From the NCBI RefSeq assembly GCF_024721585.1, contig NZ_CP102629.1, positions 1,302,001-1,366,000 of the forward strand: a stretch of DNA of 64,000 nucleotides. Direction: 5' to 3'. This DNA comes from Sphingomicrobium aestuariivivum. Lineage in GTDB: Bacteria > Pseudomonadota > Alphaproteobacteria > Sphingomonadales > Sphingomonadaceae. Every line of letters starts with the position of its first letter. The stretch's first letter is position 1. A model generated the notes under the pieces. That model was not told where the DNA came from. It saw only the letters and a list, made by a program, of their open reading frames with translations, and ran no database searches. Positions 448 to 12,071 of the stretch are shown here, piece after piece. The position numbers and the translations under genes were made by a program.

Positions 448-498
448 GCGCGCGCCTCTTCTGGCGTTGTTAACCATTTTGGGCGATGGTCCTTTTCC

Positions 499-1191
499 AT
501 GAGGATCATCGCCCTTTTTCTTGCCGCCCTCTCCCTAGCCAGCCCTGCGCAGGCCGAGGAGCGTCGTTTCACCGTCACCGACTTCGACAAGGTCCGCCTC
601 GATGGCGGCTTTGCTGTCGAGATGGTGACCGATCGCTCGCCCTTTGCCATCGCCGAGGGCAATTCGGCCGCGGTGGACGGGGTGCGCATGCGGGTCGAGG
701 GGCGCACGCTCATCATCTCCGCCAACCGCTCCAACTGGTCGGGCAGCGAGCGCGACCGCGCCGAACCGGTCGCCATCCGCATCGGCACGCACAATGTCCG
801 GCAGGTTTGGGTCAATGGTTCGGGCATGATCGCGATCGACAAGGTGAAAGGTCCGGCTTTCGGCCTTGCCATCCAGGGTGCGGGCCGCGCCACCGTCGGC
901 AATGTCGTCGTCGAGGAACTCGAGGTCGCGCTAAACGGCGCGGCGAGCGCCGAGGTGGCGGGCGATGTCGAGGATGCCACGCTGATCGTGCGCGGCATGT
1001 CGTCGCTGGCCGCCGAAGGGCTGGAGAGCGACCGCGCCATTATCGGCGTGGACGGTCCCTCGATGGTCCGTCTCGGCCCCGCGCGCGAGGCGCGGATCGA
1101 CGCCATCGGCACCGGCGACATCAGCCTTGCCGGTCGCCCCAATTGCGAATTGCGCCTCGTCGGCTCGCCGAGCGTGACGGGCTGCCGCTAG
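499..1191 (+). CDS. GIN-domain (DUF2807) secreted protein
   Basis: This 230-residue protein begins with a clear cleavable signal peptide (MRIIALFLAALSLASPAQA, cut after about residue 19). The body is a DUF2807 beta-helix that starts with a typical 'FDKVRLDGGFAVEM' segment and ends in a short Cys-containing strand (CELRL...SVTGCR). It is more divergent than the upstream paralog, with fewer GSGD repeats. Family members are exported proteins of unresolved function, often called adhesin-head-like. No Shine-Dalgarno sequence is obvious before the ATG. It is convergent with the DUF1489 gene, with 3 bases between the stops. Confidence 0.85.
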   Translation: MRIIALFLAALSLASPAQAEERRFTVTDFDKVRLDGGFAVEMVTDRSPFAIAEGNSAAVDGVRMRVEGRTLIISANRSNWSGSERDRAEPVAIRIGTHNVRQVWVNGSGMIAIDKVKGPAFGLAIQGAGRATVGNVVVEELEVALNGAASAEVAGDVEDATLIVRGMSSLAAEGLESDRAIIGVDGPSMVRLGPAREARIDAIGTGDISLAGRPNCELRLVGSPSVTGCR

Positions 1192-5236: not shown

Positions 5237-5995
5237 ATGACCAAGCTTGTCACGCTGATCACCGGGGCCTCGGCGGGCCTCGGTGTCGAATTCGCCCGCC
5301 AATATGCGGCGAAGGGGCATGAGCTCGTGCTGGTCGCGCGTCGTCGCGACCGGCTCGATGCGCTTGCCGCCGAGCTCGGCAAGGCGCGGGTGGTGGCGAT
5401 GGACCTCTCCGAGCCGCACGCCGCCAGCCGCCTCCTCGCCGACATCGCCTCGGCAGGCGAGCAGGTCGGCACCCTCGTCAACAATGCGGGCTTCGGGCTG
5501 GTCGGCGCCTTCGATGCGCTCGACAGCGCGCGCCAGCGGCAGATGGTCGACCTCAACTGCGGGCTCCTCGCCGAGCTCGCGCATGGCGTCATCCCCGGCA
5601 TGAAGCGCCTCGGCCACGGCGGCATCCTCAATGTCGCCTCGGTTGCAAGCTTCCAGCCGGGGCCCGGCATGGCGACCTATTTTGCCACCAAGGCCTTCGT
5701 GCTGTCGCTGTCCGAAGCGCTCCACGAGGAATATCGCAAGACGGGCATCCACGTCAGCGCGCTCTGCCCCGGCCCGACCGCGACCGAATTCGGCGATGTG
5801 GCGGGTTTCGGCGGCAATTCGGCGGTCGATGTCGTGAAGATGACCGCCGAGCAAGTGGTCGCGGCCGGCATCAAGGGCCTTGAGGCCAACAAGGCGGTGG
5901 TCGTGCCCGGCGTAGCCAACAAGATTTCGGCCAATTCCAGCCGTTTTCTGACCCGCAAGGCGGTGCGCAAGGTCGTCGGCATCATAAAAAAGTGA
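5237..5995 (+). CDS. Short-chain dehydrogenase/reductase (SDR)
   Basis: A classical SDR of 252 residues with a Rossmann fold. The nucleotide-binding motif is TGASAGLG near residue 10, followed by 'LVNNAG' and catalytic Tyr148 and Lys152 (YFATK). The 'ALCPGPTATEF' turn is typical of the DltE/YqjQ-like branch of cytosolic oxidoreductases. The substrate is unknown. The gene has a GAGG Shine-Dalgarno. Its stop codon lies inside a perfect 12-base palindrome, reported separately. Confidence 0.9.
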   Translation: MTKLVTLITGASAGLGVEFARQYAAKGHELVLVARRRDRLDALAAELGKARVVAMDLSEPHAASRLLADIASAGEQVGTLVNNAGFGLVGAFDALDSARQRQMVDLNCGLLAELAHGVIPGMKRLGHGGILNVASVASFQPGPGMATYFATKAFVLSLSEALHEEYRKTGIHVSALCPGPTATEFGDVAGFGGNSAVDVVKMTAEQVVAAGIKGLEANKAVVVPGVANKISANSSRFLTRKAVRKVVGIIKK

Positions 5996-6003: not shown

Positions 6004-6008
6004 AACTT

Positions 6009-6043
6009 TTGCACTTGCACAATAAATGGTGCGGTGCGATAAA
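6009..6043 (+). promoter_or_regulatory. Predicted sigma-70 promoter of the small RNA
   Basis: Two abutting TTGCAC hexamers occupy 6009-6020. From the second one (6015-6020) a 17-base spacer leads to GATAAA (6038-6043), predicting a start near 6050. The surrounding 16 bases TTTTGCACTTGCACAA (6007-6022) recur exactly at the rsh promoter (12553-12568). Confidence 0.5.
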
Positions 6044-6049
6044 GGTTGC

Positions 6050-6120
6050 GTCGAACCACTGGTTCGGCATCCTCTCCTGACGGGGCCCGGTCGTTTCGGC
6101 GATCGGGCCCCATTTTCTTT
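6050..6120 (+). ncRNA. Candidate trans-acting small RNA with anti-Shine-Dalgarno loop
   Basis: A roughly 70-nt transcript is predicted between the promoter above and a strong intrinsic terminator. Hairpin 1 is CGAACC-ACT-GGTTCG (6052-6066). A single-stranded linker with CCTCTCCTGA (6071-6080) follows, then the terminator stem. The pyrimidine-rich CUCUCCU linker could pair with ribosome-binding sites. The layout (short hairpin, exposed CU-rich stretch, terminator, about 70-80 nt) recalls Hfq-dependent alphaproteobacterial sRNAs such as the alpha-r8/SuhB group; this resemblance is inferred, not tested. No credible ORF occupies the interval. Confidence 0.5.
6082..6120 (+). terminator. Intrinsic terminator
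   Basis: A 12-bp stem is formed by 6082-6093 and 6100-6111 (GGGGCCCGGTCG with its complement, one G-U pair) around a TTTCGG loop. It is followed by ATTTTCTTT. It ends the predicted sRNA and any readthrough from the SDR gene. Confidence 0.8.
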
Positions 6121-6223
6121 CCGGGCGAGCGCGCACCCCGCCCCTTTTTTCATTCCGGTCCCTTTCCCATCTGAACCTTTGCCGAGCCCGACCCATTGTC
6201 GGTGAAAGAGCGAAGGAGCATCC

Positions 6224-8560
6224 GTGGCCGAGAGTGACAGCGATACCCGCGTAAAGCCCAACCGCGTCCAGGTGGCGAGCCTGCCGCCCGCCGATTCGGG
6301 GCGCGGCCTCGCGCGGCTGCCCGCGGGCCTCATGGACGCGCTCGGGCTGGCCGACGGCGATGTCATCACCATCACCGGCAAGCGCACCACCCCGGCGCGC
6401 GCGATCCGCCCCTACAAGGACGACGCCGGCCTCGACATCATCCGCCTCGACGGGCTCCAGCGCACCAATGCCGGCGTCGGCGCGGGCGATTTCGTGACTG
6501 TCGAGAAGGCGGTGTCCAAGCCCGCGAAGAAGGTCAGCTTCGCTCCCGCCCAGCATGGCTTGCGGCTGTCCGGCTCGACCGATGCGTTGAAGCGAAGCTT
6601 CTTCGGCGCGCCGCTGACCAAGGACGATTTTGTCGCCACCGCTGGCCACCAGCGGGTCAATACCGACATGCCCGAGAACATCCGCGAACTCCTGCAGGCG
6701 CCCACCTTCGCGCTGCAGGAGATCCGCCTGCGCGTGGTCGCCACCCAGCCGCAGGACATCGTCCATATCGATGCCCAGACCGAGATCGAACTGATGCCCG
6801 AAGGGCCCAAGGTCGAGGCGGGCGATCGGCCCGCCATCACCTATGACGACCTCGGCGGCATGACCGACACGATCGACGCGCTGCGCGAGATGGTCGAATT
6901 GCCGCTGCGCCATCCCGAACTGTTCCAGCGCCTCGGCGTCGACCCGCCCAAGGGCGTGCTGCTCCACGGCCCGCCCGGCACCGGCAAGACCATGCTCGCG
7001 CGCGCCGTCGCCAACGAAAGCGATGCCGAATTCTTCCATATCGCGGGCCCCGAAGTCATGGGCTCGGCCTATGGCGAATCCGAAAAGAAGCTGCGCGAAC
7101 TGTTCGAGAATGCCGCCAAGGCCGCGCCCTCGATCGTCTTCATCGACGAGATCGACTCGATCGCCCCCAAGCGCGACAAGGTGCAGGGCGAGGCCGAAAA
7201 GCGCCTCGTCGCCCAGCTCCTCACCCTGATGGACGGCCTCGAGCCGCGCGCCAACCTCGTCGTCATCGCCGCGACCAACCGTCCCGACGCGATCGACCCC
7301 GCATTGAGGCGCCCAGGCCGCTTCGACCGCGAGATCGTGGTCGGCGTGCCCGACGAGGCGGGGCGTCGCGAGATCCTCGGCATCCACACCCGCGGCATGC
7401 CGCTGGCCGACGATGTCGACTTGGACAAGCTCGCGCGCCGCACCTATGGCTTCGTCGGCGCCGACATGGCGAGCCTGACACGCGAGGCCGCGCTCGAGGC
7501 GGTCCGTCGCATCATGCCGCGTATCAATCTCGGCGAGGACGAGATCCCGCAGGAAGTGCTCGAAAGCCTCGCGGTCACCGCCGATGATTTCCGCGAAGCG
7601 CAAAAGCGCGTCCAGCCGTCCGCCATGCGCGAGGTGATGGTGCAGGTCCCGCGCGTCGGCTGGGACGATATCGGCGGCCTCGACGAGGCGCGCGACAAGC
7701 TCAAGGAAGGGATCGAGCTGCCCTTGAGGCACCCCGACGCCTTCCGCCGCCTCGGTATCCGCCCGGCCCGAGGCTTCCTCCTCTACGGCCCGCCCGGCAC
7801 CGGCAAGACACTGCTCGCCAAGGCCGCGGCGCGCGAGTCGGAGGCCAATTTCATCGCCACCAAATCCTCCGACCTTTTGTCCAAATGGTATGGCGAGAGC
7901 GAACAGCAGATCGCCCGCCTGTTCAGCCGCGCCCGGCAGGTCGCCCCCACGGTGATCTTCATCGACGAGATCGACAGCCTCGTGCCCGCGCGCGGCGGCT
8001 CGATGGGCGAACCGGCGGTCACCGAGCGCGTCGTCAACACGATCCTCGCCGAGATGGACGGGCTGGAGGAGATGAACAATGTCGTCGTCATCGGTGCTTC
8101 CAACCGCCCCAACCTCCTCGACCCCGCGCTCTTGCGCCCCGGCCGCTTCGACGAGCTGATCTACGTCGGGCCGCCCACCCTCGAGGGGCGGCGGCGGATC
8201 CTCGAGATCCACACCGGCCAGATGCCGCTTGGACCGGACGTCGACCTCGACGATCTCGCGCAGCGCACCGACCGCTTCACCGGCGCCGACCTCGAGGACC
8301 TCGTGCGCCGCGCCGGCCTCATCGCCATGCGCCGCGACATGGAGCGCGCCGAGGTGTGCAAGGAGGATTTCGAGAAAGCACTCGAGGAGACCAAGCCCTC
8401 GGTCACGGCCAAGATGCTCAAGCAATATGAACGCATCCGCTCCAACCTGAAGCAGGAAGCGCTGAAACCCCAGCCGACCATCGGCTTCGTCTCGCCCGGC
8501 ATGCTCAGTCCCAAGTCGAAGACCAAGAACGGCCCTTCGACGGACGAGGAAGAGGAGTAG
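6224..8560 (+). CDS. CDC48/VAT-type AAA ATPase
   Basis: A 778-residue tandem AAA+ ATPase, the bacterial counterpart of archaeal VAT and eukaryotic p97/Cdc48. The N domain (about 1-190) has the double-psi barrel and following subdomain ('GRGLARLPAGLMDALGL'). D1 carries Walker A GPPGTGKT near residue 245 and Walker B FIDEID near 305. D2 has the second Walker A near 520, FIDEID near 580, and 'ATNRPDAID' and 'ASNRPNLLD' sensor regions. These enzymes form hexamers that unfold or segregate proteins. The gene starts at GTG with GAAGGAG upstream. The highly charged C-terminus ends in DEEEE. The bacterial substrate or protease partner is unknown and none is adjacent. Confidence 0.93.
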   Translation: MAESDSDTRVKPNRVQVASLPPADSGRGLARLPAGLMDALGLADGDVITITGKRTTPARAIRPYKDDAGLDIIRLDGLQRTNAGVGAGDFVTVEKAVSKPAKKVSFAPAQHGLRLSGSTDALKRSFFGAPLTKDDFVATAGHQRVNTDMPENIRELLQAPTFALQEIRLRVVATQPQDIVHIDAQTEIELMPEGPKVEAGDRPAITYDDLGGMTDTIDALREMVELPLRHPELFQRLGVDPPKGVLLHGPPGTGKTMLARAVANESDAEFFHIAGPEVMGSAYGESEKKLRELFENAAKAAPSIVFIDEIDSIAPKRDKVQGEAEKRLVAQLLTLMDGLEPRANLVVIAATNRPDAIDPALRRPGRFDREIVVGVPDEAGRREILGIHTRGMPLADDVDLDKLARRTYGFVGADMASLTREAALEAVRRIMPRINLGEDEIPQEVLESLAVTADDFREAQKRVQPSAMREVMVQVPRVGWDDIGGLDEARDKLKEGIELPLRHPDAFRRLGIRPARGFLLYGPPGTGKTLLAKAAARESEANFIATKSSDLLSKWYGESEQQIARLFSRARQVAPTVIFIDEIDSLVPARGGSMGEPAVTERVVNTILAEMDGLEEMNNVVVIGASNRPNLLDPALLRPGRFDELIYVGPPTLEGRRRILEIHTGQMPLGPDVDLDDLAQRTDRFTGADLEDLVRRAGLIAMRRDMERAEVCKEDFEKALEETKPSVTAKMLKQYERIRSNLKQEALKPQPTIGFVSPGMLSPKSKTKNGPSTDEEEE

Positions 8561-11471: not shown

Positions 11472-11493
11472 GGCTCTCGCGACAAGCGACATG

Positions 11494-11528
11494 AAAAAAG
11501 GGCGGTGCCGCGAGGCGCCGCCCTTTTT
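11494..11528. terminator. Bidirectional intrinsic terminator (rpoZ / hxlR)
   Basis: A 10-bp GC stem (11500-11509 with 11514-11523, one G-T pair) with a GCGA loop is flanked by six A on the left and five T on the right. It can therefore terminate both rpoZ and the convergent HxlR gene. Confidence 0.85.
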
Positions 11529-11549
11529 CGTTCAGGCCCTGGCCGCGGC

Positions 11550-12071
11550 CTAGAGCTCGACCTTGTCCATCTGGTGACGGCGGATCGTCGCGCCGGTGCG
11601 GCGGTCGATCCACATCAGGTCCTTCAATCCCAGCACAGTGCCGTCCTGCGCGGTGACCGAAACGCGCGCCACCGACTTGCCGTCGCGCACGTCGGCGAGC
11701 TGGATGTCGGAACAGCCATGACCCCAGTCCTCGCCCCACTGCCGGAGCGCGACCACCACGGGCAGCAGCGCCTCGCCCTTCTCGGTCAGCTGGTAGACCA
11801 CCTTGCGCCCGTCATTGGGATCGGGCTGGCGGTCGAGGATGTCGCCCGCGACCAGCTTGGACAGCCGGTCCGACAGGATATTGCGGGCGATGCCGAGACC
11901 CGCCTGGAACTGCTCGAAATGCTTCAGCCCGTTGAAGGCACCGCGCAGGATGAGGAAGGACCAGCGCTCGCCGATCAGCTCGATCGCGGGCGGAAGCGGA
12001 CAGCGCAGTGCCGCGTCCCGGAATGACTCGATGTCGGGTTCGATGCCGCTCAATCCTGTGTCCTTTGTCAT
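11550..12071 (-). CDS. HxlR family transcriptional regulator
   Basis: A 173-residue winged-helix regulator of the HxlR type. The N-terminal signature is 'CPLPPAIELIGERWSFLILR', then 'FNGLKHFEQFQAGLGIARNILSDRLSKLVAGDIL' spans the HTH, and the wing is 'DGRKVVYQLTEKGEALLPV'. A C-terminal extension of about 55 residues goes beyond the minimal HxlR fold. It is divergent from the CC_3452 family gene and probably regulates it and itself through the inverted repeat at 12133-12155. Confidence 0.92.
   Translation of the reverse strand: MTKDTGLSGIEPDIESFRDAALRCPLPPAIELIGERWSFLILRGAFNGLKHFEQFQAGLGIARNILSDRLSKLVAGDILDRQPDPNDGRKVVYQLTEKGEALLPVVVALRQWGEDWGHGCSDIQLADVRDGKSVARVSVTAQDGTVLGLKDLMWIDRRTGATIRRHQMDKVEL

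What the first reader, a model, noticed from the sequence alone, without database searches (positions are those of the whole stretch)
6009..6120. Orphan small RNA candidate with promoter, two hairpins and anti-Shine-Dalgarno linker
The gap between the SDR and CDC48 genes holds a complete transcription unit without an ORF: TTGCAC-N17-GATAAA, a start near 6050, hairpin CGAACC-ACT-GGTTCG, single-stranded CCTCTCCTGA, and a 12-bp terminator with a T-rich tail. The exposed CUCUCCU is complementary to ribosome-binding sites, the mode used by several Hfq-dependent alphaproteobacterial sRNAs.
Basis: partly seen in the sequence, partly recalled or inferred. Interest (0 to 1): 0.7.

Follow-up and report, generated by a model that had tools for sequence, protein, structure and literature searches.

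The report
Divergent SuhB-type small regulatory RNA gene
The gap holds what is very probably a real small-RNA gene, a strongly diverged relative of a known alphaproteobacterial family (SuhB/MmgR/SisA) that silences messenger RNAs at their ribosome-binding sites, with a promoter that looks tied to carbon storage.

Summary
Window 6008-6120 has a promoter-like pair (TTGCAC 6015-6020, N17, GATAAA 6038-6043), an 8-bp hairpin (6050-6068), an exposed linker AUCCUCUCCUGAC and a 13-bp terminator.

It is not an orphan. A covariance model built without sequences of the window's genus finds it as the only significant hit in 64 kb (22.8 bits, E 2.4e-5; next 0.11). The same model hits just upstream of the same CDC48-type ATPase gene in 79 of 80 named loci. 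Six of ten copies tested at this locus in relatives pass Rfam RF00519, suhB/mmgR. The window copy does not match RF00519, so Rfam-based annotation would miss it.

Best reading: a diverged alphaR8/SuhB-lineage sRNA that pairs with ribosome-binding sites, probably with Hfq. Its promoter spacer carries a PhaR-type core (TGCGGTGCG, 6030-6038), also in 22 of 24 genus copies examined (0.2 expected); phaR is in the genome. The FGase-linked copy seen in relatives appears lost here.

Expression, Hfq binding, targets and PhaR control are inferred. Novelty: variant of a known family.

The parts
6008..6022 (+). conserved promoter block TTTGCACTTGCACAA, counterpart of TTCGCACTTGCACAA in relatives; contains the -35
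   Evidence: [TC]GCA-N-TTGC in 70 of 70 regex-found CDC48-linked copies and in 79 of the 80 lines (L139 lacks it)
6015..6020 (+). -35-like hexamer TTGCAC
   Evidence: sequence; 17 bp before GATAAA; inferred promoter
6030..6038 (+). PhaR-type core TGCGGTGCG (YGCRNYGCR) in the promoter spacer
   Evidence: core present in 22 of 24 genus copies (0.2 expected in mononucleotide shuffles) and 35 of 80 CDC48 loci incl. window (0.7 expected); consensus from passages of PMC12542648
6038..6043 (+). -10-like hexamer GATAAA; start of transcription inferred near 6050
   Evidence: sequence
6050..6068 (+). 5' hairpin GUCGAACC-ACU-GGUUCGGC, 8 bp
6069..6081 (+). single-stranded seed linker AUCCUCUCCUGAC, complementary to AGGAGAGGAU ribosome-binding sites
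   Evidence: CTCTCC (6072-6077) invariant in 44 of 44 rows, the U and C before it in at least 90%; unpaired 0.68-1.0
6082..6120 (+). intrinsic terminator, 13-bp stem (6082-6111) and U-rich tail
   Evidence: terminator helix covaries in relatives
6041..6122 (+). whole sRNA as matched by the leave-genus-out covariance model R2
   Evidence: 22.8 bits, E 2.4e-5, only significant hit in the window
6171..6199 (+). separate promoter-like element of the CDC48 gene (CTGAAC-N17-CATTGT)
   Evidence: TGAAC[CG] element in 14 of 16 genus loci with and 11 of 14 without the sRNA
5237..5995 (+). upstream gene: short-chain dehydrogenase
   Evidence: PF00106; homolog upstream in only 6 of 80 wider loci
6224..8560 (+). 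downstream gene: CDC48-type double AAA+ ATPase
   Evidence: PF02359, PF02933, PF00004 in two stretches

Best explanation
Window 6050 to about 6118 encodes a roughly 69-nt trans-acting sRNA of the sphingomonad branch of the alphaR8/SuhB/MmgR/SisA lineage. SHOWN by computation: homology to CDC48-linked relatives of which several pass RF00519; conserved position, linker, a stem before the linker, and terminator; a conserved promoter block; a PhaR-type core in the promoter spacer; Hfq, PhaR and PHB synthase genes in the genome. INFERRED: it is transcribed from its own promoter. PhaR bound between -35 and -10 represses it, and repression is lifted when PhaR is drawn onto PHB granules (carbon surplus). 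With Hfq the linker AUCCUCUCCU pairs with AGGAGAGG-type ribosome-binding sites and blocks translation. The neighbouring CDC48 gene has its own promoter and is probably not its target. Because the FGase-linked copy seen in relatives is missing here and the searches run found no other copy, this may be the genome's only lineage member.
For: Leave-genus-out model R2 finds 6041-6122 as the only significant hit in 64 kb. R2 hits 79 of 80 CDC48 loci, always just 5' of the gene; 25 of these were at places used for training, and of the 55 others 54 hit. In the genus 16 of 30 loci hit (window included; the 30 best CDC48 matches of 61 genomes), with scores grading from 63 to 21 bits. Of the ten CDC48-linked copies among the 15 loci, six pass the RF00519 cut-off (L076, L082, L101, L119, L143, L019); L022 does too. 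CTCTCC invariant in 44 of 44 rows. Fold z -5.3. PhaR-type core in 22 of 24 genus copies, 0.2 expected. PhaR in 25 of 25 genomes searched, PhaC in 13 of 13, Hfq in 24 of 25. In S. meliloti PhaR binds the mmgR promoter and represses it (PMC12542648 passages). In Sphingopyxis a 61-nt Hfq-dependent SuhB represses thnR, and PHB granules favour its transcription (PMC6563040 passages). In Caulobacter SisA represses mRNAs through a 10-nt anti-SD core (PMC12559287 passages).
Against: The window copy gets no RF00519 match even at E 10, and four of the ten CDC48-linked copies also fail it. Its core AUCCUCUCCU is not the published alphaR8 10-mer UUUCCUCCCU. Hairpin covariation is weak. The PhaR-type core is absent from 45 of 80 CDC48-linked promoters; among 13 copies at other places it is in the spacer of 5 and elsewhere upstream in 1, so PhaR control cannot be general; the two LysR-side genus copies also lack it. 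The window site fits the S. meliloti core but not the full Bradyrhizobium 12-mer. Fourteen of 30 genus loci lack the sRNA, and only 28 of 61 genus genomes gave any R1 hit. The count of one copy in the own genome rests on searches that scored 79 of 1486 (R1) and 150 of 208 (RF00519) first-look candidates. No expression data were available.
Confidence: 0.75

Rival explanations
1. Cis-acting leader or attenuator of the CDC48 gene: the hairpins sit in its 5' UTR and gate read-through.
For: Position just 5' of CDC48 on the same strand in 79 of 80 loci; the linker lies about 110-240 nt before the gene in the 70 regex-found loci.
Against: Homologous copies occur elsewhere: of 23 RF00519 hits with this core in named genomes 10 are at CDC48 by coordinates and 13 are not. 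Neighbours of the latter include RpoN, FtsK and phosphomannomutase-type genes. A TGAAC[CG] promoter-like element lies before CDC48 whether or not the sRNA is there. The linker-CDC48 leader duplex is weak, -10.8 kcal/mol.
Confidence: 0.1
2. 3' UTR-derived RNA or plain terminator of the SDR gene.
For: It starts 55 nt after the SDR stop and ends in a strong terminator.
Against: An SDR homolog lies in the upstream DNA held (3 kb; less for L121, L122, L139) in only 6 of 80 wider loci while the sRNA is in 79. Promoter block present in 70 of 70 copies.
Confidence: 0.05
3. An unrelated anti-SD sRNA (for example AbcR/alphar15 type) that converged on a similar plan.
For: RF00519 fails on the window copy; Rhizobiales sRNA Atu_C4 fits its plan with 15.7 bits, E 1.
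Against: Graded intermediates at the same locus, same promoter block, R2 hit. All 8 Rfam matches have E 0.74-9.1.
Confidence: 0.05
4. The gene is real but its regulator is not PhaR; the TGC repeats are part of a general promoter or bind another factor (for example a LysR-type regulator).
For: A second, more widespread element, TTGCA-N4-6-TGCAA at a fixed place, in 66 of 70 loci (shuffle rate 0.55% per locus) has the T-N11-A spacing of LysR sites (recalled). Two genus copies sit next to a LysR gene. PhaR-type core missing in 45 of 80 CDC48 loci.
Against: That inverted repeat is not seen in the window clade (L075 misses it; window by eye), while the PhaR-type core is present there.
Confidence: 0.35

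Closest known systems
alphaR8 / suhB / mmgR family (Rfam RF00519), incl. S. meliloti MmgR and Caulobacter SisA-D
   Same: Short 5' hairpin, single-stranded CU-rich anti-SD core, intrinsic terminator; own promoter; PhaR-type site in promoter as published for mmgR; several copies in many genomes.
   Different: Core AUCCUCUCCU instead of UUUCCUCCCU; rebuilt 8-bp hairpin; the AAAACUUU-like stretch before the terminator is missing; CDC48-linked instead of FGase-linked; not matched by RF00519.
Sphingopyxis granuli TFA SuhB (61 nt, represses thnR with Hfq)
   Same: Shares the SuhB name and, on general knowledge, the order of bacteria; PHB granules reported to favour transcription (PMC6563040 passages).
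   Different: Its sequence and locus were not seen here (the primary paper is not held), so whether it is the CDC48-linked copy is unknown. thnR regulation is thought in that review to be a later addition.
AbcR (alphar15) and Rhizobiales Atu_C4 sRNAs
   Same: Anti-SD CU-rich unpaired stretches (AbcR); hairpin-linker-terminator plan (Atu_C4).
   Different: AbcR1/2: 114-120 nt, three stem loops (PMC7143759 passages); no significant model match to the window.

Membership tests
RF00519 suhB/mmgR (alphaR8) | Reaches Rfam gathering score (41 bits) | tested here: not met
   No match for the window copy at gathering, at E 10 on 261 bases, nor among the 28 weak hits in its own genome (150 of 208 candidates scored). 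Met at the same locus in relatives by six of ten copies, and by L022.
RF00519 suhB/mmgR (alphaR8) | 10-nt single-stranded core UUUCCUCCCU | tested here: not met
   Core here is AUCCUCUCCU; published core from PMC12559287 passages.
RF00519 suhB/mmgR (alphaR8) | Short 5' hairpin, then unpaired anti-SD core, then intrinsic terminator | tested here: met
RF00519 suhB/mmgR (alphaR8) | Adjacent to FGase gene (reported for most single-copy species, PMC12559287 passages) | tested here: not met
   The one FGase match is elsewhere (G000 2175261-2175935); after its stop only a terminator-like hairpin was seen before the next, SapC-like (by sight) gene, and no RF00519 match.
RF00519 suhB/mmgR (alphaR8) | Common descent with family members | tested here: met
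   R2 hit, same locus as copies passing RF00519, graded scores within the genus. No tree was built.
RF00519 suhB/mmgR (alphaR8) | Hfq association and RBS repression | not testable with these tools
   hfq present with two domain matches; binding not tested.
RF00519 suhB/mmgR (alphaR8) | PhaR (AniA) site in promoter, as in S. meliloti mmgR | tested here: inconclusive
   YGCRNYGCR core at 6030-6038, but not the full Bradyrhizobium 12-mer; binding itself not tested.
AbcR/alphar15 | Three stem loops, 114-120 nt, two aSD motifs | tested here: not met
   Two hairpins, about 69 nt, one aSD stretch; features from PMC7143759 passages.

The most novel reading that the evidence does not exclude
In sphingomonads the SuhB lineage became a PHB-gated, co-regulated sRNA set: a variant-seed branch that settled 5' of CDC48, multiplied in some genomes (six copies with this core in Sphingobium sp. 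Leaf26) while keeping one shared promoter plan (the TTCGCACTTGC block, often a TTGCA-N5-TGCAA repeat and, in part, a PhaR core). This is unlike Caulobacter's SisA-D, whose promoters are reported to share no motif. In the window's clade the set has shrunk to one copy with a rewritten hairpin that now alone carries the function of the lost FGase-linked copy.
Probability: 0.35. Interest if true: 0.6.

Novelty: new variant of a known kind. Interest (0 to 1): 0.42.

Why it matters
It shows that members of a curated RNA family can drop out of view within one genus while locus, linker and promoter persist, so 'no SuhB/MmgR' calls from Rfam in sphingomonads are unreliable (S. astaxanthinifaciens, G088, also gave no RF00519 hit). 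The conserved promoter makes a concrete, cheap test possible: does PhaR couple carbon storage to an anti-SD sRNA here, as reported for S. meliloti mmgR? The near-constant link to CDC48 (79 of 80 loci) also contrasts with the original statement that the suhB element is not associated with specific neighbouring genes (PMC1273637 passages).

Tried and rejected
Direct Rfam search of the window: nothing at gathering. With E up to 10 on the interval 8 weak matches, E 0.74-9.1 (mir-676, Atu_C4, P6, mir-Ro6-3 twice, MIMT1_1, Pxr, asX1). Rejected as chance, or in the case of Atu_C4 as similar plan only.

Plain DNA similarity: only 6 of 41 genomes matched, the own one included and two of them over the promoter alone. 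That is how the link to a suhB hit in G007 was first seen.

First conservation count by a regular expression gave 70 of 80 loci. It missed copies with altered linkers (Erythrobacter and others), so the model search (79 of 80) replaces it. Likewise a protein-motif test for CDC48 neighbours gave 7 of 23; coordinates give 10 of 23.

Model R1 contains the window, so its hit in G000 is not independent evidence. R2 was built without that genus for this reason.

Hairpin covariation as decisive evidence: dropped, too few distinct sequences. The consensus fold of A1 shows only the terminator.

Target prediction: AGGAGAGGN{0,8}ATG occurs 8 times in the genome against 2 for the reversed pattern; one of the 8 is the sRNA's own complement, leaving seven candidates with duplexes of -14.9 to -20.6 kcal/mol. 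They were chosen for complementarity, so the energies prove nothing, and conservation was not tested; no target is claimed.

Pattern for the upstream module in 13 genomes was too loose: many hits outside sRNAs.

Searches for a regulator: PhaR and short-chain acyl-CoA regulator (RamB/PccR) papers were listed; only two PhaR papers were looked into, by passages. The acyl-CoA regulator idea was not tested further.

Literature: no paper describing a CDC48-linked suhB copy was seen in the listings of searches; a search for sRNA + CDC48 + Sphingomonas found 0 papers. The library lacks most subscription journals. The two primary papers most likely to bear on it (Lagares 2016, recalled as the source cited for the family's phylogeny; Garcia-Romero 2018) were not read.

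Full report
WHAT IS THERE. The interval lies between a short-chain dehydrogenase gene (5237-5995) and a CDC48-type double AAA+ ATPase gene (6224-8560) on the same strand. The sequence shows two tandem TTGCAC; the second (6015-6020) has 17 bp to GATAAA (6038-6043). From 6050 it folds into an 8-bp hairpin, an unpaired stretch AUCCUCUCCUGAC, and a 13-bp terminator with U-rich tail. The fold is more stable than all 200 dinucleotide shuffles (z -5.3). The genome is taken as Sphingomicrobium-like: the closest named CDC48 match is S. astaxanthinifaciens at 91%.

IS IT CONSERVED. DNA similarity reaches only a few genus members (6 of 41 genomes, own included), but one of them (G007) has the promoter block directly before an RF00519 hit. 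Taking the CDC48 gene as anchor, 80 named loci were fetched (the best 80 of 266), and a regular expression found the linker upstream in 70. A covariance model R2 was then built from 38 sequences, none from handles or records of the window's genus. In the window its only significant hit is 6041-6122 (22.8 bits, E 2.4e-5; next best 0.11; E-values are rough). Over the 80 loci (651 kb) it gives 79 hits at E up to 0.01, each just 5' of CDC48 on its strand, the miss being L134. Of the 79, 25 were at places used for training (24 rows plus L146, the same place as row L175), so 54 of the 55 others hit; many of these are close relatives of training rows. In 30 genus loci (159 kb; the 30 best CDC48 matches of 61 genomes, window included) it gives 16 hits with scores from 63 down to 21 bits. 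Fourteen genus loci have none, and R1 found a copy anywhere in only 28 of 61 genus genomes (strict filters). The simplest reading is that the locus is old in the family, is often lost in this genus, and that the window clade is the far end of a continuum. No tree was built.

WHAT FAMILY. Of 15 loci given, ten are CDC48-linked copies; six of these pass the RF00519 (suhB/mmgR) gathering score (L101 58.0 bits, L119, L143, L082, L019, L076) and four do not (L099, L075, L004, L005). Of the other five, L010 and L021 (LysR-side, 42.9 bits) pass and L024, L026, L033 do not. The window copy does not match RF00519. The family has been characterised as MmgR in Sinorhizobium, SisA-D in Caulobacter (core UUUCCUCCCU, repression at 5' UTRs; PMC12559287, passages) and as a 61-nt SuhB in Sphingopyxis granuli (PMC6563040, passages). 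Here the core is AUCCUCUCCU. In 12 named genomes RF00519 found 28 hits in 11 (the twelfth is S. astaxanthinifaciens). Of the 28, 23 have the AUCCUCUCC core and 5 do not; 22 of the 23 and none of the 5 carry the upstream [TC]GCANTTGC block, 0.06 expected in shuffles. Ten of the 23 are at CDC48 and 13 elsewhere, beside RpoN, FtsK, phosphomannomutase-type, bacterial PH-domain and ROS/MUCR genes among others. So sphingomonads hold two branches: a canonical-core one and a variant-seed one with its own promoter block, of which the CDC48-linked copy is one place. In this genus RF00519 hits L026 and L031 lie beside genes with the HSGR motif of N-formylglutamate amidohydrolase (by sight). In the window genome the one FGase gene (PF05013) is followed only by a terminator-like hairpin and a SapC-like gene (by sight), with no RF00519 match.

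STRUCTURE EVIDENCE. In the 38-sequence alignment 8 of 13 pairs change on both sides and no shuffle of 500 reaches the score, but all 8 are in the terminator; the first helix is nearly invariant. In the window clade (5 sequences, 4 distinct) 96.9% of cells pair (25 of 500 shuffles as high) and only 1 pair changes on both sides (130 of 500). All 88 distinct 5' parts (from 117 copies) fold to a hairpin before the linker, a count without a null. The stem is thus kept while its letters were replaced in the window clade, but formal covariation for it is weak.

PROMOTER AND CONTROL. In 70 regex-found CDC48-linked copies the TTCGCACTTGCA block is almost invariant, and an inverted repeat TTGCA-N4-6-TGCAA ends 68-70 nt before the linker in 66 of 70 (shuffle rate 0.55% per locus). 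The window clade does not show that repeat (L075; window by eye). It has, in the spacer before the -10, TGCGGTGCG, which fits the PhaR core YGCRNYGCR published for S. meliloti, where PhaR binds the mmgR promoter and represses it (PMC12542648, passages); it does not fit the full 12-mer published for Bradyrhizobium (PMC6201568, passages). The core is present in 22 of 24 genus copies (0.2 expected; 24 of the 33 rows were used, dropping two duplicates, four weak hits and three rows without locus), in 35 of 80 CDC48 loci including the window (0.7 expected) and in 6 of 13 copies elsewhere (0.2 expected; in one of the six it lies upstream of the spacer) (mononucleotide shuffles). It is therefore not universal. 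PhaR is encoded in 25 of 25 genomes searched and PHB synthase in 13 of 13 genus genomes. The reported positive effect of PHB granules on suhB in Sphingopyxis (PMC6563040) agrees with PhaR titration by PHB, which is my inference.

HOW IT MOST LIKELY WORKS. Steps shown: sequence, homology, conservation, presence of Hfq (24 of 25 genomes, 23 with two domain matches and one with three), PhaR, PhaC. Steps inferred: transcription from 6050; PhaR repression; Hfq-assisted pairing of the linker with AGGAGAGG-type ribosome-binding sites. Together with the last bases of the hairpin the linker is complementary to a ribosome-binding site plus start codon (AGGAGAGGAUGC). Eight genomic places fit AGGAGAGGN{0,8}ATG against two for the reversed pattern, one being the gene's own complement. 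No single target is claimed. A cis role on CDC48 is unlikely: copies lie elsewhere too, CDC48 keeps its own promoter-like element with or without the sRNA (14 of 16 and 11 of 14), and the duplex with its leader is weak (-10.8 kcal/mol). Being part of the SDR transcript is unlikely: an SDR homolog is upstream in 6 of 80 wider loci.

VERDICT. A good catch: conserved, very probably a real gene, and invisible to Rfam at this locus, but a diverged variant of a known family rather than a new kind. By strict membership it fails two features of RF00519 (score, exact core) and is filed as a variant of homologous origin.

Noticed in passing
L165, L177, L181, L184, L187, L189 (Sphingobium sp. Leaf26) and L166, L178, L182, L185, L188 (Sphingomonas formosensis): Six and five copies of the AUCCUCUCC-core sRNA in one genome (one of each at CDC48); 22 of 23 such copies in the named genomes share the [TC]GCANTTGC promoter block.
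   Followed up: partly
about 84-69 nt upstream of the linker in 66 of the 70 loci: Inverted repeat TTGCA-N4-6-TGCAA at a fixed distance in 66 of 70 CDC48-linked copies, binder unknown, not seen in the window clade.
   Followed up: partly
G000:C1:215103-215492 and genus genomes: Hfq matches come in pairs with the same open-frame length, as of two Hfq domains in one gene, in most of the 24 genus genomes with a match (of 25 searched).
   Followed up: no
L021 (G004) and L033 (G007): A further copy of the sRNA next to and upstream of a LysR-type regulator gene.
   Followed up: no
L253 (G000:C1 around 2175 kb): Where relatives have an FGase-linked sRNA only a terminator-like hairpin was seen between FGase and a SapC-like gene.
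   Followed up: yes
L105 (record titled Bacillus sp. 2B10): A record named Bacillus carries a sphingomonad-type CDC48 locus with the sRNA, so the record is probably mislabelled or contaminated.
   Followed up: no
window 481-514 (+) and 11487-11565 (-): Terminator-like hairpins (14 pairs at 481-514) lying in the next best, non-significant model hits (E 0.11).
   Followed up: no
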